This document shows, piece by piece, positions 1,072 through 57,141 of a DNA stretch of 64,000 nucleotides (its first letter is position 1; each line of letters opens with the position of its first letter). The DNA is from Actinocorallia sp. API 0066 (lineage in GTDB: Bacteria > Actinomycetota > Actinomycetes > Streptosporangiales > Streptosporangiaceae): NCBI RefSeq assembly GCF_020991275.1, contig NZ_JAJLQY010000008.1, forward strand, positions 248,001-312,000, read 5' to 3'. The notes below the pieces were generated by a model. The model did no database searches, was not told the origin of the DNA, and worked only from the letters and a program-made list of their open reading frames with translations. The position numbers and the translations under genes were made by a program.

Positions 1072-1107
1072 GGTACTTTCTCCCAGGGATTCGGGCGCGC
1101 ATGTCGG

Positions 1108-4100
1108 TCATCCCGGTCCGTTCGCCTTCGACGAGGGTCCCCCGAGCACGGATAGCGGAACGACCTCCGTAGTGTGGGCGAGCCACCTAAGTGCGACCTT
1201 AAGAACGCCTAACGCGGCGAGCTCCGCACGCATGAAGCGGGCCAGGGCGGCGGGCGTCGGATGGTCGAAGACCGCCACCGGCGGCAGCGGCAGCCCGGTG
1301 GCCGCGCACAGCCGGTTGCGCAGATCGAGGGCCGTCAGGGAGCTGAAGCCCGCCTCGGCGAATCCCGCGTCCAGATCGGCCTCGGCCGCGTCGGCGTGCC
1401 CGAGAACGGTCGCGGCGTGGAAGCGGACGAGTTCGGCGAGGATCTTCTCCTGGTCGGGTTCGCTCGCCCCGGCCAGCCGCAGCCGCAGCTCGGCCACCGC
1501 GTCGTCGTCCTCCTCCGGCACGGGAAGGTCCGTGGCGGGGGCCGCGGGGGCGTTGTCCTGACGCCACCGCGCCAGGGCGGGCAGCAGCTCGGCCAGCGGG
1601 CCGCGCAGCTCCTCGGGCAGCAGCAGATCGGCGGCCAGCCGGTCGGTGTCGCCGTCGGCGACCGCGGACCAGAAGCCCGTCTCGGCGGCCGATCCGCGGC
1701 TCCAGGCGGGGGCGTCCAGCCAGTACCGGCGGCGCTGGAAGGCATAGGTCGGCAGGTCGGCGACGCGGGCGTCCGGATACAGGGCGTCCCAGCCGACGGG
1801 CACGCCCCGCGCGTGCAGCCGCGCGACGGCCTGGAGCACCGAGCGCGGCTCGGTCCGGTCGCGGCGCAGCGCCGGAACACAGGTCCCGTCGCCGGTGAGG
1901 ACCTGCTGGGCGGCCGGGGTGAGGACCCCGTCGGGGCCCAGCTCCAGCGCGGTGCGCACCCCGGCGCGCTCCAGCGCCGCGACGGCGGGGGCGAACCGGA
2001 CGGCCTCGCGCACCTGCCGCACCCAGTAGGCGGGCGAGGTGAGCAGGCCGGGTCCGGCGAGCTCCCCGGTGACGGTCGACACGACCGGGATCACCGGCTC
2101 GCGGTAGGACAGCGCGGCGGCGACCTCGCCGAACTCCGCCAGGACCTCGTCCATGTGCGCGGAGTGGAAGGCGTGGCTGACCCGTAGCCGCCGCGTCCTG
2201 CGGCCCAGCCCGCGCCAGTGCTTCACGGCGGCGGCGACGGCCGGGCCGTCACCCGACACCACGACCGCGTCGGGGCCGTTGACGGCCGCCAGCGACAGGC
2301 CCTCGCCCGCCTCCGCGAGGAACGCGGTGATCTCCTCCTCGCCCGCCTGGATCGCGCCCATCGCCCCGTCCGACCTGGCCCGCTGCATCAGCGAGCCCCG
2401 CGCGGCGACCAGCCGGGCGGCGTCGGGGAGGGTGAGCACCCCCGCGACATGCGCGGCGGCCAGCTCGCCGATGGAGTGCCCCGCGACGAGGTCGGGCCGC
2501 ACCCCCCAGCCCTCCAGCAGCCGGAACAGCGCGACCTCGAAGGCGAACAGCGCGGCCTGGGTGTACTCGGTCCGGTCGAGCGCGCCGTCGTCCTCGGCCA
2601 TCACCTCGACGATCGGGCGGCCGAGCAGCGGATCGAGATGGCCCGCGATCTCGGCGAGCGCCTCGGCGAAGGCGGGGATCCGCTCGGCCAGGGTGACCCC
2701 CATGCCGGGCCGCTGGCTGCCCTGGCCGGAGAACAGGAACGCGGTACGGCCCGGCCGGGCCGCGTCGGCGACCACGCCGGGCGACTCCTCGCCGCGCGCC
2801 AGATCGGCCAGCCCGCGCAGCAGGTCGTCACGGTCGTCGCCGAGGACGACCGCGCGGTGCTCGAACAGGGTGCGGCGGGTGGCCAGGGCGTGCCCGACAT
2901 CGGCGGGGCCGGCGTCGGGACGGGCGATCGCGAAGTCCAGCAGCCGTCCCGCGCTCGCGCGCAGCGCCGCCGGGGTCCGGCCGCTGAGCGGCCACAGCAG
3001 CGCAGGGGCCGCGGCGGGCGCCGCCGCCGGTTCCGGCTCCTCGCCGTCGGGCGCCTGTTCGAGGATCACGTGGGCGTTGGTGCCGCTGATGCCGAAGGAG
3101 GAGACGGCGGCCCTGCGCGGCCGGTCGTGCTCGGGCCAGGGCGTCGGCTCGGTGAGCAGGCGGACGGCCCCGGCGCTCCAGTCGACGTGCGGCGAGGGCT
3201 CCTCCGCGTGCAGTGTCCGCGGCAGGACCCCGTGCCGCAGCGCCTGGACGGTCTTGATGACCCCGGCGACCCCAGCGGCGGCCTGGGTGTGGCCGATGTT
3301 CGACTTGATCGACCCGAGCCACAGGGGGGTCTCGCGGTTCTGGCCGTAGGCGGCGAGCAGCGCCTGGGCCTCGATCGGGTCGCCGAGGATGGTCCCGGTG
3401 CCGTGCGCCTCGACCGCGTCGACCTCGTGCGGTTCGAGCCCCGCCTCGGTCAGGGCACGTTTGATGACCCGCTGCTGGGACGGACCGTTGGGTGCGGTGA
3501 GGCCGTTGCTGGCGCCGTCCTGGTTGACGGCCGATCCCTTGAGGACGGCCAGGACGGGGTGGCCGTCGCGCCGGGCGTCCGACAGCCGTTCCAGGAGCAG
3601 GAGGCCGGCGCCCTCGCCGAATCCGGTGCCGTCGGCCTCCGCTCCGAACGAACGGCACCGGCCGTCGGGGGACAGGCCGCGCTGACGGCTGAACTCCACG
3701 AACAGCGCCGGGGCGGCCATCACGGTGACGCCCCCGGCCAGCGCCAGATCGCAGTCCCCGGCGCGCAGCGCCTGCGCGGCCAGGTGCAGCGCTACCAGCG
3801 AGGACGAGCAGGCGGTGTCGACGGTGACGGCGGGGCCGAGGAACCCGAAGGTGTAGGCGATCCGGCCCGAGGCGACGCTGCCCGCGCTGCCGTTGCCGAG
3901 GAAGCCCTCCAGCTCGGCGGGGGCCTCGTGCAGGCGCAGCGCGTAGTCGCCGTACATCAGGCCGGTGAACACCCCGGTCCTGCTGCCGCGCAGCGCGGCC
4001 GGGCTGATCCCGGCCCGCTCCACGGTCTCCCACGCGGTCTCCAGCAGCAGCCGCTGCTGGGGATCGGTGGCCAGGGCCTCGCGCGGGCTCATCCCGAAGA

Positions 4101-4425
4101 AGGCCGCGTCGAAGTCGAGGGCGTCGGTGAGGAAGGCCCCCGACCGGGTGTAGGAGGTGCCGACGCGTTCGGGGTCGGGGTCGTAGAGGGCGTCGAGATC
4201 CCAGCCGCGGTCCTCGGGGAGGCCGCCGATGGCGTCGGTGCCCGAGGCGACCAGATCCCACAGGTCGTCGGGGGAGCCGACGCCGCCGGGGTACCGGCAG
4301 CCCATGGCGACGATCGCGATCGGCTCGCGCCGCCCGTCCTCCAGTTCCCGTACGCGCTTGCGGGTCTGCTGGAGATCGGCCGTCACCCGCTTCAGGTAGT
4401 CGAGGAGCTTGGCTTCGTTCGTCAC
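1108..4425 (-). CDS. Type I PKS, extension module 8 (KS-AT-ACP, no reduction, no thioesterase)
   Basis: 1105 aa; GTG start at 4425 with GGAGG six bases upstream. Residues 1-33 form the coiled N-terminal docking helix ([14 protein letters not shown]). KS about 35-460 with active Cys206 (VDTACSSS) and both His motifs (EAHGTGT, KSNIGHT). AT about 560-860 has GHSIGE and the HAFH signature expected for malonyl-CoA. The ACP Ser is Ser1029 in GFSSL, where GFDSL is usual. There is no KR, DH, ER or TE, so the final intermediate should be a beta-ketoacyl thioester left on the ACP. That fits release by the KAS III/glyceryl-ACP system at 48376-51550 instead of a TE. It starts 20 bp after the module 6-7 gene and is the last of four collinear PKS genes. 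The last 35 or so residues look like read-through: they contain a TTA codon (Leu1072) and overlap the heptad repeats. Confidence 0.95.
1185..1213 (-). promoter_or_regulatory. Three direct heptads at 11-bp period upstream of the solute-binding protein gene
   Basis: On the minus strand three heptads GTTAGGC, TTAAGGT and CTTAGGT start exactly 11 bp apart (forward positions 1207, 1196 and 1185), each separated by 4 bp. The site lies 114-142 bp upstream of the TTG start and inside the 3' end of the module 8 PKS gene. The AAGGTC-N4-TTAGGTGGC core recurs at 51613-51630. The heptad/11-bp geometry is what is known for transcription activators that bind one helix face (SARP-type); which regulator binds here is inference. 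Confidence 0.5.
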
Positions 4426-4445
4426 GGGGTTCCTCCGGGGAACGG

Positions 4446-15830
<11,385 letters not shown>

Positions 15831-15879
15831 CCACTTCTGGGTCGTGCCGGGTCTGGGCGGCGCGGAGTCGGGCGTCGGG

Positions 15880-27252
<11,373 letters not shown>

Positions 27253-27302
27253 GATGTCGTGTCCCCTTCTCGATGTGCGCGATGGCCGGTGTCGGCGGCC
27301 GT

Positions 27303-39300: not shown

Positions 39301-42300
39301 GCGGAGCGGCCGTCGCCGTCGAACAGCTGGAGGGCGATCCCCTCGCCCGAGGGGGAGATCCGCGCCCGCAGGACGCGTCCGGCGGGCGCGCCCAGGGTGA
39401 CGCCGCTCCAGGAGAAGGGCAGCAGCGGCCGGTCGGCCGGCGCGCCGCGCACCGTCAGGTGCAGGGCCGCGTCCAGGAGCGCGGGATGCAGAACGAACCC
39501 CGTGGTGTCGACGTCGTCGGGGAGCGCGAGGTCGGCGAAGATGGCCTCACCGGCGGTCCACGCGGCCCGGACCCCCTGGAAGAGGGGCCCGTAGTCGTAG
39601 CCGCGGGTGGCCAGGTCGTCGTACAGGCCGGTCAGGTCGAGGCGGCGGGCCCCGGCGGGCGGCCAGGCGGCGGCCGGGACGGCCGGCGCCGCGGGCTCCG
39701 GGGCGAGCAGGCCGGTGGCGTGCCGCGTCCAGGGCGGTTCGGGATCGCCGGCCGGCCGGGAGTGGACCGCGACGGCGCGCCGCCCGTGCTCGTCGGGCAC
39801 GGCGAGGGTGACCTGGAGCTGGACGGCCTCCTGTTCGCCGAGGACGAGCGGCGCGTGCAGGGTGAGCTCTTCGATCCGGCCGGCGCCGGCCCGGGCTCCG
39901 GCGTGCGCGGCGAGGTCGACGAACGCGGTGCCGGGCAGCAGGACGGTCCCGGCGACGGCGTGGTCGGCCAGCCACGGGTGGGTGCGCAGCGACAGAGCGC
40001 CGGTCAGGACGGTCGCGTCGCCCTCGGCGAGGGAGAGCGCGGCGTTGAGGAACCGGTGCCCTGCGGGGTTCTGCCCGAGCGCGGACGCGTCGGCCGTCCC
40101 GGCGTTCACGGGGTCGATCCAGAACCGTTCGCGCTGGAAGGCGTAGGTCGGCAGGTCGTCGGCGGCCGGTCCATCGGGGAGCGCGGCGGACCAGTCGACG
40201 GGTGCTCCGGCCAGGCGGGCCTCGGCGAGGGACAGCAGGAACCGCTCGGCGCCGTCCCGGTCGCGCTGAAGGGTGCCGGCGGTGCGGGCGTCCGGCAGGG
40301 TGTCCTGGAGGGCGCCGGTCAGGATCGGATGGGGGCTGACCTCGACGAACAGGGTGTGGCCGTCGGCGGCAGCGGCCCGCACGGTCCGCTCGAACTCGAC
40401 GGTCTGGCGCAGGTTGCGGTACCAGTAGGCGGCGTCGAGCGCGGTGCTGTCGAGGAGCTCGCCGGTGACGGTGGAGTAGAAGGGCACGGCCGGGGGACGG
40501 GGGGTGATCCCGTCGAGGGAGTCGAGGACGGGCCGCCGCACCGCCTCCACGTGCGGGGAGTGGGAAGCGTAGTCGACGGGGACCCGCCGAGCCCGCACCC
40601 CCTGCCGCTCGTACCGCGCGAGGAGCTCCTCGATCGCCTCGGGGTCGCCGGAGACCACGGTCGCGGCGGGTCCGTTGACGGTGGCGACGGCCAGCCGCGC
40701 GTCCAGGTCGGCGCGGACCTGCTCGGCGGGCAGCGCCACCGACGCCATCGCGCCGCTCCCGGCGAGCGCGGTGATCGCCCTGCTGCGCAGGGCCACGACG
40801 CGGGCGGCGTCCTCCAGCGACAGCGCCCCCGCGACATAGGCGGCGGCGATCTCGCCCTGGGAGTGCCCGATGACCGCGTCGGGACTCACGCCGTGCGCCC
40901 GCCACAGGGCGGCCAGCGACACCATGACCGCGAACAGCAACGGCTGCACGACGTCGACCTCGTCCAGGGCCGCCGGGTCGGCGAGGGCCTCGTGCGGCGA
41001 CCAGTCGATGTGGGGGGCGAGCGCGCGGGCGCAGGCGTCGAACTCCGCGCGGAAGACCGGGCTCGCGGCCAGCAGGTCCGTGGCCATCCCGGTCCACTGC
41101 GAGCCCTGCCCGGGGAAGACGAACACGGTCCTGGCCGAACCGGCCGCCTCTCCGCTGACGACGTTCGCGGCGCTCTCGCCCCGGTTCACCGCCCGCAGCC
41201 CGGCGAGGAGGTCGCCGGTGTCCCGCCCGACCACGACGGCCCGCCGTCCGAACGTGCTCCTGGCCAGCAGCCCGCGGGCCACCGAGGCGGGCGCGGCCGA
41301 GGGCCGCTCCCGCAGGTGGTCCGCGAGCCGTCCGGCCTGGGCCCGCAGGCCGTCCTCGCCCGCCCCGGACAGGACCAGGGCGACGGGCGGCGTGCTCCCG
41401 GGCTCCTCCGCCTGCGGCGCCGGCCGTTCGGCGGGCGGCTGTTCGAGGATCAGGTGGGCGTTGGTGCCGCTGATGCCGAAGGAGGAGACGGCGGCCCGGC
41501 GCGGACGTTCGGCGTCGTGGGGCCAGGGCGCGGGCTCGGTGAGGAGCCGCAGCCGGCCGGATCCCCAGTCGATGCGGGGGGTCGGGCTCTGGGCGTGGAG
41601 GGTCGCGGGGAGCGTCTCGTGCCGCAGAGCCATGATCATTTTAATGACGCCGCCGACGCCCGCCGCGGCCTGGGCGTGACCGATGTTCGATTTGAGCGAG
41701 CCCAGCCACAGGGGGGTGTCGCCCGCGCCGTAGGCGGTCTGGAGGGCGGTGGCCTCGATGGGGTCGCCGAGGGTGGTGCCGGTGCCGTGGGCCTCGACGG
41801 CGTCGATGTCCTGCGGGCGCAGGCCGGCGTCGGCCAGGGCGCCGGCGATGACGCGCTGCTGGGCGCGGCCGCTCGGCGCGGTGAGGCCGTTGCTGGCGCC
41901 GTCCTGGTTGATCGCCGAACCGCGGATGACGCCGAGCACCCGGTGGCCGTTGCGCAGGGCGTCGGGCAGGCGTTCCAGCAGGAGCATGCCGACGCCCTCG
42001 GCCCAGCCGGTGCCGTCGGCGTCGGCGGAGAAGGCGCGGCAGCGTCCGTCGGCGGACAGTCCGCGCTGGCGGCTGAACTCCACGAACATGCCGGGCGTCG
42101 ACAGGACCGTCGCGCCGCCCGCCAGCGCCAGGTCGCATTCACCGGACCGCAGCGACCGCGCCGCCAGGTGCAGGGCGACCAGCGAGGACGAGCAGGCGGT
42201 GTCGACGGTGATGGCCGGGCCCTCCAGGCCGAGCGCGTAGGCGATGCGGCCGGAGGCGACGCTGGTCGTGCCGCCGGTCAGCAGGTAGCCGTCCAGGCCG

Positions 42301-45300
42301 CCGCCGGGCTCGTGCAGCCGGGGCCCGTAGTCCTGCGCGGTCGCGCCGACGAACACCCCGGTGGGGCCGCCGGTCAGGCCGCGCGGATCGAGACCGGCCC
42401 GCTCGACGCTCTCCCACGCGGTCTCCAGCAGCAGCCGCTGCTGGGGGTCCATCGCGGCGGCCTCGCGCGGGGAGATGCCGAAGAACGCGGCATCGAACCC
42501 GGCGACGTCGCGCAGGAAGCCGCCGCCCCTGGCGTAGGTGGTCCCCGGGACGTCCGGGTCGGGGTCGTAGAGGTCCTCGAGGTTCCAGCCCCGGTCGTCG
42601 GGGAAACCGCCGATGGCGTCGGCTCCCGAGGCGACCAGGTTCCACAGGTCCTCCGGCGAGGCGACCCCGCCGGGGTAGCGGCAGCCGATCCCGATGACGG
42701 CGATCGGCTCGTCGTGGCTCGTCCGCACCGTCCGCGTGACGGCGGCGGGCGGCGTCTCCAGCAGGTGGCGGGTGAGCGCGGCCGGGGTCGGATGATCGTA
42801 GACGAGGGTGTCGGCCAGCGGCACGCCGAGGGACTCGGTGAGCCGTTCGCTGAGCTCCACCCCCATCAGCGAGTCGAATCCGAGGTCCTTGAACGTCAGC
42901 GCGTCGTCGACCGCTCCGGGGTCGGCGTGCCCCAGGATCGCGGCGACCTCGGCCCTCACGGTGGCCTCCACCTCGGCGGCCTCCCCGGCGGCCGGGGGCG
43001 CCGCGGGATCGACCGCGACCGGCTCGGCCGCCGGCGCGGTACGGGCGGGCGCGGGGTCGCCGAGCCAGTGGACGCTGCGGTCGAAGGCGTAGGTCGGCAG
43101 GTCGACGACCCGGCCGGGAAGGATCAGGTCCCAGGAGGGTGACACGCCCCGGGTGTGCAGCCGGGACAGCGCGGTCAGGAGGGTCGCGGGCTCCGGCCGG
43201 TCGCGGCGCAGCAGCGGGATGATCGTCCGGCCGCCGCCGGTCGCGGTGCGGGTGAGTCCGCTGAGGACGGCGTCGGGCCCGATCTCGACGAACACCGAGG
43301 CGTCCGCGGCCAGCAGCGCCCGCACCCCGTCGTGGAACCGGACGGGCGCGCGCACGTGCCGCACCCAGTAGTCGGCGGAGCCGAGCAGCCCCGGTGCGGC
43401 GAGGGCGCCGGTCACGTTGGAGACCACGGGCAGGCGCGGTTCACCGTAGGCGAGCCCTTCGGCGACGGCCCGGAACTCCTCCAGGACGCCGTTCATGTGA
43501 GGGGAGTGGAAGGCATGGCTGACCTTCAGCCGGCGGGTCCGGTGCCCGCGCCCGGCCCACAGCGCGCCCAGCTCCAGGACGGCGTCGATGTCACCCGACA
43601 CGACGGTGGCGGCGGGCCCGTTGACGGCCGCGACCGAGACCCGGCCGGCGTAGGCGGCCAGGTCGGGCCGTACGGCGTCCTCGGCGGCCTCGACCGACAG
43701 CATCGCCCCGTCCGAGCGCGCCGACTGCATGAGCCGGCCGCGCGCGGTCACCAGCGCGGCGGCGTCGGCCGGCGACAGCACCCCGCTGACGTGCGCGGCG
43801 GCGATCTCGCCGACGGAGTGGCCGATGAGCAGATCGGGGACGACGCCCCACCGTTCGAGGAGCCGGAACAGGGCGACCTCGATCGCGAACAGCGCGGTCT
43901 GGGTGACCGCGGTCTCGTTCAGCCGCTCGGCCGCCTCGGAGCCGGGCTCGGCGAACAGCAGCGCCTTGAGGCCCGGGTCGAGGTGGGTGAGGACGGCGTC
44001 GAGCTCCTCGGCGAAGGCGGGCACCTCGGCGGCGAGCTCGCGGCCCATGCCCGCGCGCTGGGAGCCCTGCCCGGAGAACAGGAAGGCGACCTTGGCGGGC
44101 CCGGCCTGGCCGCGGTTGACCTCCGGTGACGGTCTCCCGGCGGCGAGGGCCGCCAGCCCGGCGAGCAGCCGGTCCCGGTCGGCGCCCACGACGGCGGCCC
44201 GCCGGGTGAAGCTCGTGCGGGTGGTGGCCAGCGACCGGGCGACGTCGGCGATCGCGGGCGCCGGAGCCGAGCCGAGCCGGTCCAGCAGCCGCCCCGCCTG
44301 GCCGCGCAGCGCGGCCTCGGAGACGGCCGACAGCAGCAGCGGTACCGTCCCCTCCGGCGCGTCCACCGGCTCGGGCTCAGGCTCCGCGACGCCCTCGGCC
44401 AGCACGACATGGCAGTTGGTCCCGCCCATCCCGAACGAGCTGACCCCGGCCAGCAGCGGCCTGCCGGGGAAGGGCCAGGGCCCGGCCTCCTGCTGGACGC
44501 GCAGGTTCAGCTCCTCCAGCGGGATCGTGGCGGGCGGTGAGGCGAAGTTGAGGCTGGCGGGCAGCAGCCGGTGCCGCAGCGCCAGCACCGTCTTGATCAG
44601 GCCGGTGATCCCGGCGGCGGCCTCCAGATGGCCCACGTTGGTCTTCACCGATCCGACTGGCAGCGGCTCCCGCGGCGGGCGGTGCGTCCCGAGGGCGGCG
44701 CCGAGCGCGGCGGCCTCGATCGGGTCGCCCAGCCGGGTCCCGGTGCCGTGCAGCTCGACGTACTGGACGTCGGCGGGGCCGACCCCGGCCCGCTCGTAGG
44801 CCGCGCGCAGCACCTCGGCCTGCGCGTCGGGGCTGGGCACGGTGAGCCCGCCGGTGCGGCCGTCGTTGTTGACGGCGCTGCCCCGGATGACGGCCTGGAT
44901 CCGGTCGCCGTCGGCCAGCGCCCGGTCGAGGCGCTTCAGCACGACCAGCCCGCCGCCCTCGCCGCGCACATAGCCGTTGGCGCGGGAGTCGAAGGTGTGG
45001 CACCGCCCGTCGGGGGACAGGCCGCCGAACCTGGCGGTCGCCAGGGCGCTGTCGGGCGACAGGTTGAGGTTCACCCCGCCGGCCAGCGCGAGGGTCGTCT
45101 CGCCCGACCGCAGGGCCTCGCACGCCAGATGGACGGCGACCAGCGACGAGGACTGGGCGGTGTCGACGGTCAGGCTCGGCCCGTGCAGGCCGAGGAAGTA
45201 CGACACCCGGTTGGCGATGATCGCCCGGTTCGACCCGGTGATGGTGTGCTGGGTGACGGCGTGGCCGGCGGCGAGCTTGGCGTAGTCGTCCCAGGTCGCG

Positions 45301-45656
45301 CCGATCCACACGCCGGCGCGGCCGCCGTCGAGGTCCGCGGGCAGCACCCGGGCGTCCTCCAGGGCCTCCCAGGCCAGTTCCAGGGCCAGCCGCTGCTGGG
45401 GGTCCATCGCGCCGGCCTCGCGCGGGGAGATGCCGAAGAAGGCCGGGTCGAACCGGTCGAGGCCGTCGAGGAAGCCGCCGCGCGGGGGAGCGCCGGGCAC
45501 GTCCCAGCGTCCCGGCGGGGTGTCGGTCAGCGCGCTGGTGCCCTCGGCGAGCAGCCGCCAGAACGCTTCGGGGTCGGGCGCCTGGGGCAGCCGGCAGGCG
45601 ATTCCGATGATCGCGATCGCGTCGCCGGGGTGATCGGGCCGGGCCTTGGTAGTCAT
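27303..45656 (-). CDS. Type I PKS, KSQ loading module plus modules 1-3 (each KS-AT-DH-KR-ACP)
   Basis: 6117 aa. The loading KS (about 11-430) has Gln168 in VDTAQSSS, the KSQ form that decarboxylates malonyl-ACP to acetyl-ACP. Its AT has GHSVGE/HAFH (malonyl) and its ACP Ser is Ser929 ([10 protein letters not shown]). Module 1: KS Cys1155, AT GHSQGE/YASH (methylmalonyl), [22 protein letters not shown] with LDD, ACP Ser2635. Module 2: KS Cys2866, AT YASH (methylmalonyl), [22 protein letters not shown] with LDD, ACP Ser4324. Module 3: KS Cys4554, AT GHSIGE/HAFH (malonyl), [20 protein letters not shown] Ser6001. The tail ends [15 protein letters not shown], a docking segment. Output: a triene carrying two methyl branches on an acetate starter. 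The start ATG has GGGGA four bases upstream. The gene heads the PKS operon and its promoter lies next to the IS30/intron scar. Confidence 0.96.
31490..31731 (-). repeat. KS3 tract nearly identical to KS7 and KS2 tracts
   Basis: Module 3 copy of the shared KS segment. It runs from the codons for KSNIGHT back through the [16 protein letters not shown] and [13 protein letters not shown] region. It shares the words gaggagtgcttgggcctc and gcgttggcgagggcttggcg with module 7. Confidence 0.6.
36546..36794 (-). repeat. KS2 tract nearly identical to KS3 and KS7 tracts
   Basis: Module 2 copy of the shared KS segment. It differs from the module 3 copy mainly at the codons for LQPHEVD versus LKPSEVD (around 36670-36690), which suggests a short patch boundary. 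Confidence 0.6.
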
Positions 45657-45712
45657 CGCGTCCCCACGCCTCTCGGGAGTCTTGCTACGCCATTGACGAG
45701 CTTGACCACGGT

Positions 45713-45742
45713 CCCTAAAGCTGGTGCTTGGGCGAACCTAAA
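45713..45742 (-). promoter_or_regulatory. Paired TTTAGG heptads upstream of the PKS operon
   Basis: On the minus strand TTTAGGT (forward 45736-45742) and TTTAGGG (45713-45719) start 23 bp apart, with CCAAGCA between them at about the 11-bp midpoint. They end 57 bp upstream of the PKS start codon. The heptads match those at 51613-51630 and 1185-1213 and have the same orientation relative to the gene. This is likely an activator site for the PKS operon; the -10 element is not obvious (TAGCAA about 25 bp downstream is a weak candidate). Confidence 0.45.
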
Positions 45743-45790
45743 GGCCCATGGCGCCACGGGGGAACGCCGACGGCCCCGGGAGGGGGCGGA

Positions 45791-45891
45791 TTCTCGGGTG
45801 TGTCCGCCGGGCAGATGTCCGAGCAGGACGTAGCGGGTGTGACGCTCGACCAGGGTGATGATCGCGCTCTCGCCGCGGGCGCCGATGATGA
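45791..45891 (-). pseudogene. IS30-family transposase fragment (catalytic-core part)
   Basis: The minus-strand frame reads LIIGARGESAIITLVERHTR then YVLLGHLPGGHT, which is the (GDW)LIIG...SAI.TLVERTTRY segment around the first catalytic region of IS30 transposases. It begins exactly at the 3' end of the group II intron (45892), so the intron sits in the codons for D-L-I-I-G. Transposase similarity stops near 45791. The rest of the IS, including its terminal repeat, is gone, and the PKS promoter region follows. Confidence 0.75.
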
Positions 45892-46311
45892 GTCGGGTAA
45901 CGGGGATTGCGTTACTGCATCCCCGCCCCCTCAGAACCGTGCAAGCAGCTTTCACCGCACACGGCTCAAGCAAGCCCCGAAGGCTCGCCGGCAGGCGAAA
46001 ACGCTGGACCCGTCATGGTGGCGGTTCCCTTCCGCCGTTGACAATGGGTGTGGAGGAGACGGAGTCGTTGATCGCCCGGCATGCTCTCGTCCGGGAAGGC
46101 GATGTATTGTTTGGAAATCGCTTTTCGGATGACAGACCGCCACGTTTCCCATTCTTGTGGGCTTTGCGGCGGTTGGTCAGCGTGCAGCAGGAGCCCTCTG
46201 CAGATCGGGCAACGACCGTTTTGCGCCTTGAGGAGTCGCATGGTCATGGCATCGACCGGCAGTGGTGTTCCCTTGCGACGCCGCTGAGCCCAATATGATT
46301 TCAGGGCAGGA
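45892..46311 (-). mobile_element. Group II intron remnant (3' end: end of maturase ORF, domains V and VI)
   Basis: This is only the 3' part of a bacterial group II intron. It holds the C-terminus of the intron-encoded protein (LKSYWAQRRRKG, then CPICRGLLLHADQPPQSP and LLHTHCQRR, the HNH-like zinc region of actinobacterial intron proteins). A stop codon follows that overlaps domain V, then domain V and a domain VI hairpin. The intron ends ...CCCGAC and transposase sequence resumes at once. The 5' half of the intron and the reverse-transcriptase domain are deleted, so it cannot splice or move on its own. Confidence 0.8.
45934..45967 (-). ncRNA. Group II intron domain V
   Basis: 34 nt on the minus strand, the canonical domain V length. 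It opens GAGCCGTGTGCGGTGAAA and closes with GCACGGTTC, forming the long hairpin with the conserved lower stem and GAAA-type loop. Domain VI follows at 45892-45933 with a stem built on GGGGAT and ATCCCC. Known from the family: this is the catalytic core of the ribozyme. Here it is a relic because the rest of the intron is missing. Confidence 0.8.
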
Positions 46312-46427
46312 TCGGCAGTGGCACGGTTCACCCCGACCAGCCGGGCCGCACCCGCGACGCTGCCGTTCTCCCGATCCAGCACCTCGAAAAACCGGGTCTT
46401 CAACTCCTCAAAACCCACGATCCCCAC
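45966..46427 (-). pseudogene. Chimeric ORF: IS30 transposase N-terminus fused to group II intron protein C-terminus
   Basis: 153 codons in one open frame (GTG start). Residues 1 to about 39 look like the helix-turn-helix start of an actinobacterial IS30 transposase (RFFEVLDRENGSVAGAARLV, then GVNRATAD). From PALKSYWAQRRRKG onward the protein is the C-terminal end of a group II intron maturase with a CPIC...HTHC zinc/HNH-like region. The join is near 46309-46312. The simplest reading is an intron inserted in an IS30 transposase gene, followed by an internal in-frame deletion that removed the middle of the transposase, the intron 5' half and the reverse transcriptase. The ORF ends two bases into domain V. 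I do not expect a functional product. Confidence 0.7.
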
Positions 46428-46499
46428 AACTCCCTGAACGACAGGGTGTTGCGGGGACCATGAGAACCCAAGGGGCTCCCGGGGCCGTCGCGATGCCGA

Positions 46500-47588
46500 T
46501 CAGGACGATCGGCGCAGACGGGCACGCGCCCGCTGAGCGGCTATCAGGGCGCCGAGCACGGCCCGCTGGGGCCGCCGGCCGCCCGACAGCTCCAGCAGGG
46601 AGCGGACGATCCACAACCGCGTCTCCAGGAAGTGCCGGGGCGAGCCGTGGACGTCGTCGTTCTCCACCAGCCGCAGATCCTTCAAGTGGCGGCGCAGATG
46701 CCCGGTGTCGCCGGGCGGGATGATCTCGTCGCGGCGGCTGGCCATCGAGTAGACCGGGATGTCCAGGGACGCCAGCAGTCCGGGCGTGAGGGCAAGGGGC
46801 CTCAGCCGGTCATGGATCTTGGCCCGGTCCGCTCCGGTCAGATGGGCGAGGGTGTCCACCGTGACCGACGGCAGGGCCCGCTGCCAGGCCTCGTCGGTGA
46901 AGAAGTCGATGATCGGGGCGCCCGCGAGGATCACTCCGCGGATGCGCGGGTCGGCGGCGGCCGCGTGCAGCGCCAGATTGCCGCTGAAACTGAGCGCGAC
47001 GGCGTAGGTCCTGGCCGCGTCGGCCCGGTCGGCGACGGCGTCGAGGATCGCGGGCAGCAGCCGGGGGCTGTCCTCGCCGTACCGCAGCGTGTTCTCGCCC
47101 ACGCCGGGCATCTCGGTGACCACCCCGGCCAGCCCCAGCCGGGCGGCCTGGAGCAGGACCGGCGCCCATTGCTCTTTGACGCTGACGATGCCGCCGATGA
47201 CCAGCAGCAGGGGCTTGGGGTCCGCGGCCGACAGCCCGGTGGTCCAGCTCCGCACCCTGCCGCCGGGCAGGTCGAGGTCGAGGCGTTCGATCGCGGTGCC
47301 GCCGCGCCACCGGTCGAAGACCTCGACGCAGCGGTCCAGGGCGGCGCCGCGCGCGGGTCCGTCGACATAGGGGAAGCGGGCCATGTTGTGGCGGCGGAAG
47401 GCCTCCAGCAGCCGGCCGGCGTTCTCGTGCTCGCGTCCGGCGTCGGTCCAGGCCCGCACCCAGGAGCCGGGGCCGTCGCCGTCGTCGTGCTCGACGGCGT
47501 CCAGGACCCGCCGGTACTCGGCCTCGGGGATGCCCTGGGCCTTGGCGTGGACGACCACGAACTGCTTGAGCTCGGCGATGTCGTTCAT
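46500..47588 (-). CDS. Alpha/beta hydrolase, tetronate C5 elimination enzyme (Agg5/AbyA5-like)
   Basis: 362 aa. The centre has an alpha/beta-hydrolase layout with the nucleophile region ALSFSGN (Ser202, where G-x-S-x-G has become S-F-S-G-N). A late acid lies in RRDEIIPP (Asp287) and candidate His residues in DDVHGSPRH (His314/His319). The N-terminal 90 residues are helical, as in the FrsA-like group. In agglomerin and abyssomicin-type clusters the homologue removes acetate from the acetylated hydroxymethyl tetronate to leave an exocyclic methylene; I assign that role from position and fold, not from a search. It overlaps the preceding acyltransferase gene by 4 bp (ATGA), so translation is coupled. 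It is the last gene of the five-gene tetronate operon. Confidence 0.8.
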   Translation of the reverse strand: MNDIAELKQFVVVHAKAQGIPEAEYRRVLDAVEHDDGDGPGSWVRAWTDAGREHENAGRLLEAFRRHNMARFPYVDGPARGAALDRCVEVFDRWRGGTAIERLDLDLPGGRVRSWTTGLSAADPKPLLLVIGGIVSVKEQWAPVLLQAARLGLAGVVTEMPGVGENTLRYGEDSPRLLPAILDAVADRADAARTYAVALSFSGNLALHAAAADPRIRGVILAGAPIIDFFTDEAWQRALPSVTVDTLAHLTGADRAKIHDRLRPLALTPGLLASLDIPVYSMASRRDEIIPPGDTGHLRRHLKDLRLVENDDVHGSPRHFLETRLWIVRSLLELSGGRRPQRAVLGALIAAQRARARLRRSS

Positions 47589-48379
47589 CGAAGGCTCGCC
47601 CGCCCCTCGTCCGAGGGCACCGCGTCGTGACCGGTCTCCTTGGGCGCCTCCAGGGCGTCCTTGATCTCGGTCAGGACGTCGGCCGCCTCCGCGCCGTCGA
47701 TCACCCGGTGGTCGAAGGCCAGGCTGAGCCGCAGGGTCGGGGCGATGGCCAGGCGGCCGTCCCGCACGACCGGCCGGTCGGCTATCCGGCCGAGGCCGAG
47801 GGTGATCGTCGTTCCGCCGACGGAGTGGAACCCGTCGACGGGCCGGTGGCCGAGCGAGGTGACGGCGAAGGTGCCGAACCGTTCGGGCCGCCGGTCCAGC
47901 GGGCGGACGACCCGCCGGAACCCGGCGCGGCCGATCACCACGGGCAGCCGGTGCAGGGCCCTCAGCCCGGCGAACTCCGGCAGGTCGGCGGCGTCGCCGT
48001 CGCGGAAGTACTCGATGCGCTCCTGGAGGGCGAGCGGGTCGGCGGTGTCGGCGTCGGGCAGGACCGCCGACAGCACGACGCGCTGCCCGTTCAGCGTCTT
48101 GTCCAGGGTGATCTTCGCGTTGACGTGCGGATGGCGGACCAGCCGGGGCCGCAGCCCGCCGCGCACGGCGGCGTTGGCGTCGGGATGGCGGGCCAGGACC
48201 CGGGCCGCGGCCGACACCACGTGCGTCAGCGTCGACAGCCGCCGTGGCGCGTCGGCCTGCCGGGCGCGCAGCGCGCTGACGTCGACCTCGGTGTCGAGGA
48301 ACACCGGCGAGAACGACCGGATCTCCTCCAGGAAGTACAGGGTGTGCAGCCGCTCGCGCGGGAAGGCGGGCCCGCTCAC
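47585..48379 (-). CDS. E2-type acyltransferase lacking lipoyl domain (Agg4/AbyA4-like tetronate O-acetyltransferase)
   Basis: 264 aa; GTG start overlapping the ACP stop by 4 bp (GTGA). The protein is the catalytic core of 2-oxoacid dehydrogenase acyltransferases: trimer-type fold segments FAVTSLGHRPVDGFHSVGGT and the end motif FDHRVIDGAEAADVL, with His224 and Asp228 of DHRxxDG. There is no lipoyl or subunit-binding domain, so it is not part of a dehydrogenase complex. In tetronate clusters such proteins acetylate the primary alcohol on C5 of the ring so that it can be eliminated by the next enzyme. The neighbours on both sides (ACP and hydrolase) support this, and the fusion of reading frames suggests the products are made in fixed ratio. 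Confidence 0.85.
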   Translation of the reverse strand: MSGPAFPRERLHTLYFLEEIRSFSPVFLDTEVDVSALRARQADAPRRLSTLTHVVSAAARVLARHPDANAAVRGGLRPRLVRHPHVNAKITLDKTLNGQRVVLSAVLPDADTADPLALQERIEYFRDGDAADLPEFAGLRALHRLPVVIGRAGFRRVVRPLDRRPERFGTFAVTSLGHRPVDGFHSVGGTTITLGLGRIADRPVVRDGRLAIAPTLRLSLAFDHRVIDGAEAADVLTEIKDALEAPKETGHDAVPSDEGRASLR

Positions 48380-48603
48380 GCGCCCACCGCCACCGCGTAG
48401 ATGCGCTCCAGGCTGCGCGCCTCCAGCAGATCGGTCAGGACCAGGGACCGGCCCGTGGTCCGCTCCAGGAGGGTCGCCAGCGTCAGCAGGTGCAGGGAGT
48501 CCCAGCCCGCCAGCTCGTCCAAGCTGCGCCCGACGTCCTCGGGGGTGACGTCCAGGCCCAGCTCGTCCTGGACGAGGGACACGAACTCATCGATCGTGGT
48601 CAC
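48376..48603 (-). CDS. Stand-alone acyl carrier protein for glyceryl-S-ACP
   Basis: 75 aa. Phosphopantetheine site Ser36 in GWDSLHLL; start TTIDEFVSLVQDELGLDVTP is typical of a discrete ACP and unlike the PKS ACP domains (no GFDSL, no RNRL). It overlaps the FkbH-like gene by 4 bp upstream and the acyltransferase by 4 bp downstream. In tetronate pathways this ACP carries the three-carbon glyceryl unit made by the FkbH-like enzyme and presents it to the KAS III-like condensing enzyme. Confidence 0.92.
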   Translation of the reverse strand: MTTIDEFVSLVQDELGLDVTPEDVGRSLDELAGWDSLHLLTLATLLERTTGRSLVLTDLLEARSLERIYAVAVGA

Positions 48604-50504
48604 GGAAGGTCTCCTCCGGAGATGTCGGCGGACAGGGAAGGGGAGTCGCTCAGCTCGTCGCGCAGGTCCAGATGGCCGGGCGGGTCCGCGGGCGCCGTCA
48701 GGTCGTGGACGTACTCGGCGCCCTCGCCGCTCTCTCCGGCACGCGTGAACCCGTGGCGGGTGTAGAACTCGGCGACCTTCCCGTTCTTGGCGCTCGGCCG
48801 GTACAGGCCGCGGACGGTGGCCGCGCCGCTGTCACGGGCGTGGCGCAGGACCGCCGACAGGCCGGCGGCCTCGACGCCGCGGCCGAAGACCCGGCAGCTC
48901 AGCAGGAAGTTCTCGATCCGCAGGGCGGTGCCTTCGCGGTGCAGCAGGACGGCCCCGACCAGCCCGTTGTCGCCGAAGCGGTCGCCGGAGCGCAGCGTCA
49001 CGACCGTCGCGGCGGGGTCGGCGAGCAGGGCGCGGACATCGGCGGGCTGGAGCCGCCGGGTCGTCAGGTTGAACTGGTTGGTGCGCAGGGTGAGCTGGGA
49101 CAGGCGGGCCACATCGGCGTCCTGCGCCCGGGCGGCCCGCACCCAGACGCCGAGCTGCTCCAGGTAGGCCTCCAGCGAGGTGAAGGTGTCCAGGAAGTCC
49201 TTGCGGGCCAGGTCCTCGCGGTACTTCTCGGTCCTGGCGCGGTCCTCGGCGGTCAGCTCGCGGACGGTGAACCAGCCGTCGGCCAGGAGCCTCGGCGTGT
49301 GCAGCGCGGGCTCGGTGTCGACCTGGACGACCGCCACGCCGGGCAGCTCACGGCGGACCAGCCCGCACTCGAACGGGCTGTCGTCGACGAAGACGAGGCT
49401 GTCGACGCCCAGCCCGAGATCCTTGGCGAGCTCGGTCAGGTTGTCGTGCTTGGGCCGCCAGTTCGCGACGATCCTGGTGAAGTCCCCCTCGCGCAGCACC
49501 ATCCCGGGATGGTCGGCCAGCGCCGCGGCGACGGGCTCGGGATCGTTCTTGCTGACGGCCGCCAGCAGCACGCCCTGCGCGCCGATCTGGGCGACCACCC
49601 GCTGGAAGGCGGCGAACGTCTCGCCCCGGTATCCCTCACCGACCTCGATGCCCTCGACCCCGTCGTCGCCGAGGACGCCGCCCCACAGCGTCTGGTCGAG
49701 ATCGACGACCAGGCACTTGGCGGCGCGTCCGGTCACCAGCCGCGCCAGATGCCCGATCTCGCGCGCGTAGCGGGCCAGCAGCGCGGGGGACAGCTGGAGG
49801 CGGGCGTAGGCGGCCAGCCGCGCGTCCACGGCGGGAATCCCCTCGGCCAGCAGGGGGTCGAGATCGACCACGACGACGTTCAGACGGGTCTCGGCCAGGC
49901 GCAGCAGCCGCGCGGCCGCCTCCCGCCACACCACGCCGAGGCGCGCCCGCGACCGCAGGTCGAGGAGCTGGGCAGGGTAGCTGGACGGCAGCGGCAGGGT
50001 GTTGAGGACCAGGGTGCCGCGGGCGTGCTCACCGAACCGGGCGGCCAGCTCCTCCAGCGTGGTGAGCCTGGCGTCCAGGACCCGTTCGACGTCCTCGACC
50101 CGCCACGGCGACGGCACCTCGTCGAAGATCACTGTCGGGTCCAGCAGGCACACGGTCAGGTCCGGGTCGGCCTCGTACAGCCCGCTCGCGGTGTCGGCCA
50201 GTTCGAGGACGTAGCCGTCGTACTGGCCGGTCCACGGCCGCAGCAGCAGCCCGTGCCGGGCCAGCTCGGCCGTCAGGGGGGCAACCAGCGTGCCGAGCGT
50301 GCCGTGCCCGGTGATCGCGATGGTGACCGCGGGGAGGCCGGGATGGGCGCGCAGGACCTCGTCGGGGTCGACCCGCGCCAGCAGCCGTCCGGCCCGGTCC
50401 AGACCGGGCTCGTCGAGCCCGGCCAGCAGCCCGCGGACCGCGGGGTAGTCGGCGGCGAGCCGCCCCGCCCGGCTCAGCTCGGCGATCGGGTCGGTGACCG
50501 CCAT
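48600..50504 (-). CDS. FkbH-like HAD-superfamily glyceryl-ACP synthase
   Basis: 634 aa from the ATG at 50504, which overlaps the KAS III stop in TGATG; a longer frame to 50540 would overlap that gene by 37 bp and is less likely. N-terminal about 230 residues are the SGNH-like part of FkbH proteins. HAD motif I is VVDLDQTLWGG (Asp268, Asp270), motif II AAVSKND, and later VDDSPFECG. The C-terminal third (about 480-600) is GNAT-like (NGKVAEFYTRHGF). Family knowledge: these enzymes take D-1,3-bisphosphoglycerate, remove phosphate and load the glyceryl group on an ACP. Here it feeds the ACP encoded immediately downstream and provides C3 of the tetronate ring. Confidence 0.93.
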   Translation of the reverse strand: MAVTDPIAELSRAGRLAADYPAVRGLLAGLDEPGLDRAGRLLARVDPDEVLRAHPGLPAVTIAITGHGTLGTLVAPLTAELARHGLLLRPWTGQYDGYVLELADTASGLYEADPDLTVCLLDPTVIFDEVPSPWRVEDVERVLDARLTTLEELAARFGEHARGTLVLNTLPLPSSYPAQLLDLRSRARLGVVWREAAARLLRLAETRLNVVVVDLDPLLAEGIPAVDARLAAYARLQLSPALLARYAREIGHLARLVTGRAAKCLVVDLDQTLWGGVLGDDGVEGIEVGEGYRGETFAAFQRVVAQIGAQGVLLAAVSKNDPEPVAAALADHPGMVLREGDFTRIVANWRPKHDNLTELAKDLGLGVDSLVFVDDSPFECGLVRRELPGVAVVQVDTEPALHTPRLLADGWFTVRELTAEDRARTEKYREDLARKDFLDTFTSLEAYLEQLGVWVRAARAQDADVARLSQLTLRTNQFNLTTRRLQPADVRALLADPAATVVTLRSGDRFGDNGLVGAVLLHREGTALRIENFLLSCRVFGRGVEAAGLSAVLRHARDSGAATVRGLYRPSAKNGKVAEFYTRHGFTRAGESGEGAEYVHDLTAPADPPGHLDLRDELSDSPSLSADISGGDLP

Positions 50505-51550
50505 CAGAGCCGCTCCAGCGCGAAGCCGGCTTTGATCCACTTGCTGGACTCCACTGCGATCCCGACCGCGCGGTCACCCCGGCCGAGCAGGCCCAGGACC
50601 TCTTCGAGCTGGAAGAACGCCAGCGCGTTCCCGCAGTTGCCGGTCTGGCCGACGCAGGTGATCTCCTCGGCGGTGTCCAGGCCGAGACGCTCGGAGATCC
50701 GGGCCGTCATCCGGCCGGACAGCTGCGGCGGCAGCACGAAGTCCAGATCGGTGTCCTTCCAGTCGAGGGAGTCGAGCAGCTCGGCGAGGATCTCGGCGGC
50801 CATCTCCGGCACCGACTCCTCGATGGCCTTGTAGTCCTCGCTGACGGCGGCCTCGCCGATCCCGGCGGCGCGTCCCGCGCGATCGGCCTGCCCGAACCAG
50901 CGGACGATCTGTCCCGGCGCGCGGCCCCGTCCGGTGAAGCGGGTCATCACCCGGCGCAGCGCGACCGTGCCGGGCGCCGGATCGGAGGTCAGGACGGCCG
51001 CGCCCGCGCCGTCGCCGAACAGCACCACATTGACGAGCTCGGCCGGGGGAAGGCTGCGCAGATCGGCCTCCAGGTCGAAGTGCCGGGCGCAGCTGTCGCC
51101 CGCGATGACCAGCGCGTTGCGGTGGCCGCCCCCGGCGAGCATCTGCCGGCCCACCTCCAGGGCCTGCACCGCGCCCGAGCATCCCGACTGGAGCTGGTAG
51201 GTCGGGATCTGGTCGATGCCCAGCCGGTCGGCGATCTCGTTGACCGTGGCGGGCATCAGCGCGTCGGGGGTGGCGGTCCCCATGACGATCACATCGATGT
51301 CGGCCGCGTCGGTTCCGGCGGCCGAAAGGGCCCGCCGGGCGGCCCGCTCGCCGAGGTCGGCCAGGGAGACGACGGTCTCGCCGGTGTCGAGGTCGACCGA
51401 CAGGTGCCTGGTGCGGGTGCCGATGAAGACGTCGATCCACTGCTGCCACAGATCGTCCATGCCGAACCGCCGGGCCAGGGTCACGTTGTCGACAGGCGGT
51501 CCGGGCAGGGCGGTTCCGGCGGACAGGAGGCGGATGTCCGATGCGTCCAT
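50504..51550 (-). CDS. KAS III (FabH-like) tetronate-forming condensing enzyme
   Basis: 348 aa; ATG at 51550 with AAGGA six bases upstream. Thiolase fold with active Cys124 (QSGCSGAVQ), the KAS III box VLFGDGAGAAVL, and Asn305 in TGNCGNA. The His of the Cys-His-Asn triad, normally in PHQAN, is replaced: the sequence reads VLPPQLSG with Pro275 at that place. In tetronate pathways this protein joins the glyceryl-S-ACP to the polyketide beta-ketoacyl thioester, using the already acidic alpha carbon, so decarboxylation (the His task) is not needed. This would release the chain from the module 8 ACP, which has no thioesterase. First gene of the five-gene operon, with the heptad site 63 bp upstream. 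Confidence 0.92.
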   Translation of the reverse strand: MDASDIRLLSAGTALPGPPVDNVTLARRFGMDDLWQQWIDVFIGTRTRHLSVDLDTGETVVSLADLGERAARRALSAAGTDAADIDVIVMGTATPDALMPATVNEIADRLGIDQIPTYQLQSGCSGAVQALEVGRQMLAGGGHRNALVIAGDSCARHFDLEADLRSLPPAELVNVVLFGDGAGAAVLTSDPAPGTVALRRVMTRFTGRGRAPGQIVRWFGQADRAGRAAGIGEAAVSEDYKAIEESVPEMAAEILAELLDSLDWKDTDLDFVLPPQLSGRMTARISERLGLDTAEEITCVGQTGNCGNALAFFQLEEVLGLLGRGDRAVGIAVESSKWIKAGFALERL

Positions 51551-54427: not shown

Positions 54428-54864
54428 GGTCTGTCTCTCCCTCAACCGCTGGCCGGATGGTCGTTCAAGAGCAAGGGAGTTGTGCCGTCGCCTCCCCCGG
54501 GGACGGGAGGCGTTCCGCTTCTTCCGCTGTGCAGTCTAGGCCGCCGGATCTCGACATTTCCGGTGCCGTGCGTGCAGCTCAGGGGGTTTTGGGCGGTCCG
54601 CAGTGCCCGCGGGGGGTGACACGGTCTCCTCGCGGGCGGCCTCGTTTCCCACTGATCGTGCGCATGAGCCGCTTCTCGTGGGCGGAGTGCTCGTGCCGGA
54701 GCGGATGCGGCTGGAGTAGCAGAAAGGTCCCACCACGATTCATGCAATGGCCCATTTCGGTCATTCATGTAGGAAAAACACACTTTGTTTTCCGGCCGGA
54801 CGCGTCTCGACCGGGGGAGCGGTGCGGTCGGTATCCTCAAGACGGACAACGGAGGATGCCTGCC
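54428..54864. other. 437-bp divergent intergenic region
   Basis: Lies between the LAL gene (minus) and the TetR gene (plus). It holds the 8-bp inverted repeat at 54489-54512, a comparatively AT-rich patch at about 54720-54795, and a TATCCT box (54832-54837) that could be the -10 element of the TetR gene. I see no copy of the TTTAGGT heptads here and no convincing coding sequence. Confidence 0.5.
54489..54512. terminator. Perfect 8-bp inverted repeat (hairpin)
   Basis: CGCCTCCC and GGGAGGCG are separated by an 8-nt loop, giving a stable GC stem 62 bp upstream of the LAL start codon. There is no T tract. In the LAL transcript it could be a leader hairpin; it could also be an operator. Function is unproven. 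Confidence 0.3.
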
Positions 54865-57048: not shown

Positions 57049-57085
57049 ACCTGTCTCTCCGTCCCTGGGTTTTCCGGTCAGTAAA

Positions 57086-57141
57086 CGGAAAGCCTCTCCG
57101 CTTACCGGGGAGATGATACGGAGAGACTCTCCGGTTCGCAA
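57086..57141 (-). promoter_or_regulatory. Efflux-gene promoter with two TetR-type palindromes
   Basis: On the minus strand TTGCGA (57136-57141) and TATCAT (57113-57118) are spaced by exactly 17 bp. The spacer holds a perfect 7-1-7 palindrome, CGGAGAGACTCTCCG (57119-57133). A second, near-perfect copy, CGGAAAGCCTCTCCG (57086-57100), lies exactly 33 bp away, three helical turns, just downstream of the start of transcription. Binding at either would block polymerase. Confidence 0.7.

What the first reader, a model, noticed from the sequence alone, without database searches (positions are those of the whole stretch)
1108..51550. Unusually short decalin-type tetronate assembly line with eight extension modules
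Seen: KSQ loading plus eight modules with no thioesterase, and a KAS III/FkbH/ACP/E2/hydrolase cassette. Known: this cassette builds 5-methylene tetronates in abyssomicin, agglomerin and spirotetronate pathways. Inferred product: a C18 chain with methyls at C4, C8, C14 and C16, alkenes at C4, C10, C12, C14 and C16, joined to a methylene tetronate (calculated C25H32O4, about 396.23 Da). C4=C5 and C10-C13 are placed for a decalin. The diene C14-C17 sits directly on the decalin, so a second spiro closure would be strained. The product may therefore stay a dienyl decalin tetronate with a reactive methylene, differing from the large spirotetronates.
Basis: partly seen in the sequence, partly recalled or inferred. 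Interest (0 to 1): 0.85.

Follow-up and report, generated by a model that had tools for sequence, protein, structure and literature searches.

The report
Orphan decalin-tetronate polyketide gene cluster
This is a bacterial gene cluster that probably builds an unreported relative of the tetronate antibiotics, and its chain seems too short for the second ring closure that turns most of its larger relatives into spirotetronates.

Summary
Window 1108-51550 encodes a KSQ loading module, eight extension modules, no thioesterase, and a complete KAS III/FkbH/ACP/E2/hydrolase cassette. No KS was found on the contig between C43:87294 and the first module, so the line looks complete.

The cluster runs about 11 kb past the left window edge. 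There it carries SARP, TEII and PPTase genes, an ABC transporter, a luciferase-like monooxygenase, an oxygenase-like flavoenzyme (FAD1), and a flavoenzyme in the TedJ/Tmn9/ChlE3 [4+2]-cyclase clade, the likely decalin synthase. No AbyU/PyrI4-type spirocyclase was found in the cluster; two genomes with L+8 lines (A. litoris, U. tangerina) gave no hit genome-wide.

The line is not unique. A. litoris and A. macra show identical module orders; A. syzygii, U. tangerina and probably Actinocrispum have L+8 variants. My searches found no published product.

I favour a non-spiro dienyl-decalin methylene tetronate (C25H32O4), further oxidised by a MonCI/Lsd18-type epoxidase, FAD1 and the luciferase-like enzyme, so 396.23 Da is probably an intermediate. 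An abyssomicin-type closure by an unlinked AbmU-like protein remains possible. Novelty: new variant of a known kind.

The parts
1..1107 (-). C-terminal part of an ABC-transporter solute-binding protein; its gene starts left of the window
   Evidence: Open frame with GC3 0.96 running from L009 into the window; identity judged by eye, a like gene by eye in the A. syzygii cluster
1108..4425 (-). PKS4: module 8 (KS-AT-ACP, malonyl, no reduction, no thioesterase); module about 4323-1258
4446..15830 (-). PKS3: module 6 (malonyl, DH-ER-KR; about 15722-9756) and module 7 (methylmalonyl, DH-KR, DH motif G to D; about 9659-4716)
15880..27255 (-). PKS2: module 4 (malonyl, DH-KR; about 27150-22222) and module 5 (methylmalonyl, DH-ER-KR; about 22125-16150)
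   Evidence: start chosen at the docking-domain methionine
27303..45656 (-). PKS1: KSQ loading (about 45620-42789), M1 mm-DH-KR (about 42707-37671), M2 mm-DH-KR (about 37574-32604), M3 m-DH-KR (about 32510-27573)
45966..46427 (-). possible transposase remnant between PKS1 and the hydrolase gene
   Evidence: no Pfam match, resemblance by eye and recalled
46500..47588 (-). alpha/beta hydrolase that would eliminate acetate to give the 5-methylene
   Evidence: orthologues about 69% identical
47585..48379 (-). E2-type O-acetyltransferase of the tetronate cassette
   Evidence: HRVIDG motif
48376..48603 (-). stand-alone ACP for the glyceryl unit
48600..50540 (-). FkbH-type glyceryl-ACP synthase
   Evidence: TIGR01686, 296 bits; no Pfam match at E 0.001
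50504..51550 (-). KAS III-type tetronate-forming synthase
   Evidence: QSGCSG cysteine; 75% identical to A. litoris and A. macra
51650..54445 (-). large LuxR-family regulator
   Evidence: AAA_16 and GerE; 51-52% to regulators in A. litoris and A. macra
54457..55473 (+). TetR-family regulator (true start probably downstream)
   Evidence: TetR_N and TetR_C_43
55558..57141 (-). DHA2-family MFS exporter
   Evidence: TIGR00711 over its cut-off; homologues of 52-59% in the sister clusters
57185..58579 (-). FAD epoxidase of the MonCI/Lsd18 kind, 43 bases upstream of the MFS frame on the same strand
   Evidence: PDB matches MonCI 209 bits and LasC/Lsd18 199 bits; nothing else better than E 0.001

Best explanation
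This is an orphan 5-methylene-tetronate cluster. The L+8 line builds a C18 tetramethyl beta-ketoacyl chain with alkenes at C4, C10, C12, C14 and C16. FkbH and the ACP supply a glyceryl unit, KAS III forms the 3-acyl tetronate, and E2 plus the hydrolase acetylate it and eliminate acetate to give C25H32O4. A TedJ/Tmn9/ChlE3-clade flavoprotein encoded 5.3-6.8 kb left of the window (L009:13183-14697, C43:241183-242697) then closes a trans-decalin between C4=C5 and C10-C13. The remaining diene C14-C17 sits on decalin C13. A second [4+2] with the exocyclic methylene would make a bicyclo[4.2.1] system with a bridgehead enol (four-atom bridge C3-C4-C13-C14, against eight atoms in nomimicin and, by recalled numbering, abyssomicin), so the product stays non-spiro. 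The MonCI/Lsd18-type epoxidase, the FAD1 oxygenase-like protein and the luciferase-like monooxygenase then oxidise it, possibly by epoxidising the C11=C12 decalin alkene and closing a tetrodecamycin-like seven-membered ether (C25H32O5, [M+H]+ 413.232, or higher oxides). Shown: module order, cassette, clade of the cyclase, no spirocyclase found in the cluster. Inferred: the chemistry, its order and every product mass.
For: Module order and no thioesterase; cassette. The left-flank flavoprotein has its three best PDB matches in tetronate [4+2] cyclases: ChlE3 399, Tmn9 367 and TedJ 350 bits (6UI5 and 8R1R named in PMC12380092). In a 36-row tree it falls in the 14-row clade with those three (100/98). 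It lacks arginines kept by MtmOIV and FlsO1: 14 of 14 clade rows lack the third of these; of the 22 other rows 20 keep it (MtmOIV and FlsO1 by construction, one identical pair counted twice) and 2 have Q. Own genome: a single PF18678 hit over cut-off, 112 kb from the window edge. Of 20 genomes reached through tetronate loci (20 of the 80 loci) 17 had PF18678 at E 0.01; the three without include A. litoris and U. tangerina, which carry L+8 lines. Positive control: S. lucensis, which holds a near relative of ChlE3, gave a hit (I did not check that both lie in one cluster). KS domains pair by position with A. litoris and A. macra at M0, M1, M3, M4, M6 and M8 in the tree. Flank genes recur in sister clusters: SARP, TEII, ABC, LLM, MFS, LuxR and TetR, not all in each.
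Against: The A. litoris, A. macra and A. syzygii clusters show no flavoprotein of the 14-row cyclase clade, so decalin closure there needs another enzyme or none; the A. litoris flavoprotein ranks ChlE3 and Tmn9 first, the A. syzygii one the oxygenase FlsO1. The two U. tangerina flavoproteins and PyrE3 were not in the tree. The TedJ residues that the cyclase keeps (H74, L77, R218, R262, R358; it has M for S208 and I for A210) are kept by FAD1 too and do not discriminate. DH7 has G to D. A possible insertion remnant lies between PKS1 and the hydrolase gene. An AbmU-like spirocyclase gene exists unlinked in this genome. No P450 was seen in the cluster, so the TedH route of tetrodecamycin is not copied. 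The PPTase gene was not matched in the sister clusters. Nothing about the product was measured.
Confidence: 0.55

Rival explanations
1. Class I, abyssomicin-type product: the exocyclic methylene reacts with the C10-C13 diene (eight-atom bridge C3-C10, as in abyssomicin) under an unlinked AbmU-like enzyme, leaving the C14-C17 diene as a side chain and no decalin.
For: The C10-C13 diene sits where abyssomicin's does (position recalled). The genome has one PF18678 protein over cut-off at C43:135243-135848 whose best PDB match is AbmU. A passage of PMC6100094 lists oxygenase, regulatory, export and possible import genes for aby; that these are of the same kinds as here is recalled.
Against: That gene is 112 kb from the window edge and about 34 kb from a second tetronate cluster of abyssomicin-like layout, its more likely partner. 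A. litoris and U. tangerina show no PF18678 match in the whole genome at E 0.01. A [4+2] cyclase-clade flavoprotein is in the cluster.
Confidence: 0.15
2. The MonCI-type epoxidase acts on the linear tetraene first and the chain is cyclised through oxygen, giving an oxygen-heterocycle tetronate rather than a decalin.
For: The epoxidase matches only MonCI and Lsd18 well. In 4 of 80 KAS III loci a related gene lies near a tetronate cassette: L049, L055, L075, L081.
Against: No epoxide hydrolase/cyclase was seen among the genes read in the cluster. The cluster carries a cyclase-clade flavoprotein. In the stretches read of A. litoris and A. macra, which have the same line, no epoxidase of this kind was matched.
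Confidence: 0.12
3. The cluster is silent or broken and makes nothing in this strain.
For: Possible insertion remnant at 45966-46427; DUF4158 gene near the left border; DH7 motif change. Two congeners show no KAS III at E 1e-110 and no cyclase at E 1e-125 (thresholds that only close relatives pass).
Against: The PKS and cassette frames are open with GC3 0.92-0.96 over about 50 kb. The DH7 change recurs elsewhere.
Confidence: 0.1
4. The product is a spirotetronate after all, through [4+2] of the methylene with the C14-C17 diene.
For: Nomimicin uses a like dimethyl diene (NMR data in PMC8404215).
Against: After decalin formation the bridge would be four atoms with a bridgehead enol (reasoned, not computed). 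No linked spirocyclase found.
Confidence: 0.05

Closest known systems
Nomimicins (Actinomadura), class II spirotetronates
   Same: C4 and C8 methyls, decalin from C4=C5 and C10-C13, terminal dimethyl diene, methylene tetronate precursor (nomimicin D)
   Different: Nomimicin has a four-carbon linker C14-C17 before the diene, an ethyl end, C7 and C9 oxygens and a spiro ring; this line lacks two linker modules
Tetrodecamycin (TedJ, TedH)
   Same: Methylene tetronate plus trans-decalin with no spiro ring; the cyclase here is in the clade that holds TedJ
   Different: Shorter chain (recalled), no dienyl arm, P450 TedH does the epoxidation and ether closure; here no P450 seen, a MonCI-type epoxidase instead
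L+8 clusters of A. litoris and A. macra (uncharacterised in my searches)
   Same: Identical module order, AT motifs and reduction; same cassette; LuxR, LLM and MFS shared by both (TetR, ABC, TEII and SARP matched in A. litoris, an ABC gene also in A. macra)
   Different: They carry a P450 (Pfam for A. litoris, by eye for A. macra) and an SDR-like gene (by eye); no MonCI-type epoxidase matched there and no flavoprotein of the 14-row cyclase clade
Abyssomicin/neoabyssomicin clusters (aby, abm)
   Same: Tetronate gene set; C10-C13 diene (recalled)
   Different: Seven modules in abm, no C4=C5 (recalled), AbyU/AbmU spirocyclase

Membership tests
5-methylene-tetronate biosynthesis | KAS III, FkbH, ACP, E2 acyltransferase and hydrolase in one set | tested here: met
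5-methylene-tetronate biosynthesis | PKS without thioesterase that delivers a beta-keto thioester (last module unreduced) | tested here: met
TedJ/ChlE3/Tmn9 [4+2] cyclases | Falls in the clade of characterised tetronate cyclases | tested here: met
   100/98 for the 14-row clade; PyrE3 not placed
TedJ/ChlE3/Tmn9 [4+2] cyclases | Loss of arginines tied to NADPH use | tested here: met
   Columns inferred from MtmOIV and FlsO1, not the published numbering; idea from a passage in PMC7489565
TedJ/ChlE3/Tmn9 [4+2] cyclases | TedJ active-site residues | tested here: inconclusive
   Five of seven kept, but FAD1 keeps the same five
TedJ/ChlE3/Tmn9 [4+2] cyclases | Decalin formation in vitro | not testable with these tools
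   Needs protein and substrate
Class II spirotetronate clusters | Linked AbyU/PyrI4-type spirocyclase (PF18678) | tested here: not met
   only C43:135255 over the cut-off; none in the cluster
Class II spirotetronate clusters | Linker long enough for a spiro macrocycle after decalin formation | tested here: not met
   Module order: diene at C14-C17, directly on C13
Tetrodecamycin-type | P450 for epoxidation and ether closure | tested here: not met
   No P450 among the genes read between L009:8016 and window 58579 (permeases and binding protein by eye); MonCI-type epoxidase instead
Tetrodecamycin-type | Non-spiro decalin tetronate product | not testable with these tools
   Predicted only

The most novel reading that the evidence does not exclude
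The L+8 lines define a separate, non-spiro class of dienyl-decalin methylene tetronates with a free electrophilic methylene. This strain differs from the three sister clusters placed in the tree in having a TedJ/Tmn9-type cyclase, and uses a MonCI-type flavin epoxidase where sisters have a P450 to close a tetrodecamycin-like ether.
Probability: 0.35. Interest if true: 0.65.

Novelty: new variant of a known kind. Interest (0 to 1): 0.5.

Why it matters
As far as I recall, the known decalin tetronates are either short and non-spiro (tetrodecamycin) or long and spiro (class II). This L+8 family sits between them: it keeps the decalin spacing and a terminal dimethyl diene but lacks the linker that would let a spiro ring close. 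If true, it gives a testable rule for when the second Diels-Alder reaction can occur, a group of near-identical lines with and without a cyclase-clade flavoprotein, and a predicted scaffold with a free methylene. In tetrodecamycin the compound without that alkene has no antibacterial activity (PMC12380092, introduction read).

Tried and rejected
Further PKS modules outside the window: no KS match on the contig between C43:87294 and the window's first KS. Spirohexenolide as the product: considered because its formula is also C25 (recalled), rejected because its high unsaturation (recalled) does not fit two ER modules; 12 papers listed, none searched for its structure. MonCI-like gene as the decalin synthase: rejected, its matches are epoxidases. 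A module-loss origin from class II lines: the KS tree gave no support for it. P450 of A. litoris against the PDB: CYP101-like matches lead, uninformative. TedJ residue check with two wrong numbering offsets, corrected, and then not discriminating. Actinomadura graeca paper: passages name one region 50% similar to abyssomicin. Literature searches for a matching product: none seen in the listings. Papers: PMC12380092 abstract, introduction, first part of results, passages; PMC13273814 abstract and first part of results; PMC8404215 parts 1 and 2 of 4; PMC10946715 abstract and one section; PMC6521127 abstract and one section; PMC10951976, PMC7489565, PMC8631618, PMC6100094 passages only. No MIBiG or antiSMASH was available, so a product in a subscription journal or an existing MIBiG entry could have been missed.
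Full report
Observation. Nine KS domains lie in it, one of them KSQ. No thioesterase domain is listed. The KAS III, FkbH, ACP, E2 and hydrolase genes are present and contiguous. The same contig has no KS match between 87294 and 251574, so the line does not look truncated at the window edge. The window holds no N.

The cluster is larger than the window. Left of position 1 (L009, which ends at window position 0) lie: a SARP regulator (9134-10186), a type II thioesterase (10183-10929), a PPTase (10926-11567), a flavoprotein here called FAD1 (11650-13128), a second flavoprotein (13183-14697), a luciferase-like monooxygenase (14708-15754) and an oligopeptide-type ABC transporter whose binding protein ends at window 1107 (permeases and binding protein by eye). 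On the right are a LuxR, a TetR, an MFS exporter and a MonCI/Lsd18-type epoxidase. Synteny supports membership: LuxR, LLM and MFS homologues lie beside the lines of both A. litoris and A. macra; TetR, ABC, TEII and SARP were matched in A. litoris and an ABC gene in A. macra. A. syzygii has LLM, ABC, MFS, SARP, LuxR and a FAD1 relative of 56%. The PPTase was not matched in these.

Decalin enzyme. The second left-flank flavoprotein matches ChlE3, Tmn9 and TedJ best among solved structures (399, 367, 350 bits), ahead of the oxygenases FlsO1, MtmOIV and PgaE. TedJ and ChlE3 formed decalins in vitro (PMC12380092 and PMC13273814, abstracts and first parts of results read; 8R1R is TedJ and 6UI5 is Tmn9). 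A maximum-likelihood tree of 36 rows places it in a 14-row clade with all three (100/98); within that clade it joins Tmn9 and TedJ with weaker support (87/89). The idea that such cyclases lose arginines used for NADPH comes from passages of PMC7489565. In my alignment the third arginine column shared by MtmOIV and FlsO1 is non-R in 14 of 14 clade rows; among the other 22 rows 20 keep R (two by construction) and 2 have Q. FAD1 keeps 23 of the 25 shared arginines and ranks FlsO1 first, so I read it as an oxygenase, with doubt. The TedJ active-site residues do not separate the two. Against a simple story, A. litoris, A. macra and A. syzygii show no flavoprotein of the 14-row clade in their clusters, although the A. 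litoris protein ranks ChlE3, Tmn9, MtmOIV, TedJ and PyrE3 highest; the A. syzygii one ranks FlsO1 first. The two U. tangerina proteins were not placed.

No spirocyclase. PF18678 (AOC_like; AbmU and AbyU are among the PDB matches of the own hit) gives one hit over cut-off in the own genome, at C43:135255-135623, 112 kb from the window edge, and one weak hit below it on C44. By eye it lies beside a LuxR, an MFS and a SARP gene. In 20 genomes reached through tetronate loci, 17 have a hit at E 0.01. S. lucensis, whose locus holds a near relative of ChlE3, is among them. The three without are A. litoris, A. meyerae and U. tangerina; A. litoris and U. tangerina carry L+8 lines, A. meyerae was not followed. 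A. syzygii has its only hit on another contig than its L+8 line; A. macra has one about 18 kb from its LuxR gene, across genes that look unrelated by eye.

How common is L+8. I followed 7 of the 80 KAS III loci to whole clusters, plus the two clusters of this genome, nine in all. A. litoris and A. macra have the window's module order. A. syzygii and U. tangerina are L+8 with other AT motifs. An Actinocrispum cluster has nine KS but my profiles found no AT, DH or KR in two of its modules. A. pelletieri and a second Actinocrispum cluster are longer (13 and 12 KS in the stretches read). This genome's second tetronate cluster is L+6. The sample was chosen, not random. KS domains of the window, A. 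litoris and A. macra pair by position at M0, M1, M3, M4, M6 and M8 in the tree; M2, M5 and M7 do not resolve. Of 149 relatives, own genome included, 8 have a KAS III at E 1e-110 or better and only the own genome has a cyclase at 1e-125 or better; these strict limits find close relatives only, and the two congeners pass neither.

Chemistry. The predicted intermediate is C25H32O4. Nomimicin (NMR data read in PMC8404215, parts 1 and 2 of 4) has the same decalin positions and a like dimethyl diene but four more chain carbons between them. Its spiro ring spans C3-C4-C13-C14-C15-C16-C17-C18, eight atoms, as does abyssomicin's by recalled numbering. Here the span would be C3-C4-C13-C14, four atoms, with the tetronate enol at the bridgehead. 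I take this as strong but uncomputed evidence against spiro closure. The oxidases make 396.23 Da an intermediate in my view. A tetrodecamycin-like ether (epoxide on the decalin alkene opened by the tetronate oxygen, a seven-membered ring) is the most economical proposal; in tetrodecamycin a P450, TedH, does this (PMC12380092, introduction read), while no P450 was seen in this cluster and a MonCI-type epoxidase was.

Judgement. It is an orphan member of a recurrent but, in my searches, undescribed L+8 family of methylene-tetronate clusters: a new variant of a known kind, of moderate interest. Not in print is claimed only for the searches listed in Tried and rejected.

Noticed in passing
G000:C43:53867-101585 (L101-L103): A second tetronate cluster in the same genome: KAS III, L+6 PKS with an abyssomicin-like layout plus a methylmalonyl M1, FkbH and two P450-looking genes (by eye).
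   Followed up: partly
G000:C43:135243-141401 (L096): An AbmU-like spirocyclase gene stands with LuxR-, MFS- and SARP-looking genes (by eye) and no KS nearby, about 34 kb from the second cluster; it may act in trans.
   Followed up: partly
window 45966-46427: Short frame with a helix-turn-helix look between PKS1 and the hydrolase gene, perhaps a transposase remnant; no Pfam match.
   Followed up: no
L009:5282-6604: DUF4158 protein (N-terminal part of Tn3-type transposases, recalled) near the left border, with a resolvase-like frame further left (by eye); the cluster may have moved.
   Followed up: partly
G011:C3:444145-455919, G011:C2:553825-565710 and window 4446-15830: The DH that should make the C4=C5 dienophile carries G to D in HxxxGxxxxP in three lines, suggesting a tolerated change.
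   Followed up: partly
L009:15811-20000 to window 1107; A. syzygii L155: An oligopeptide-type ABC transporter with its binding protein is kept in several L+8 clusters; its role for a polyketide is unclear.
   Followed up: no
window 59504-61888: UvrD-like helicase gene that probably marks the right border.
   Followed up: no
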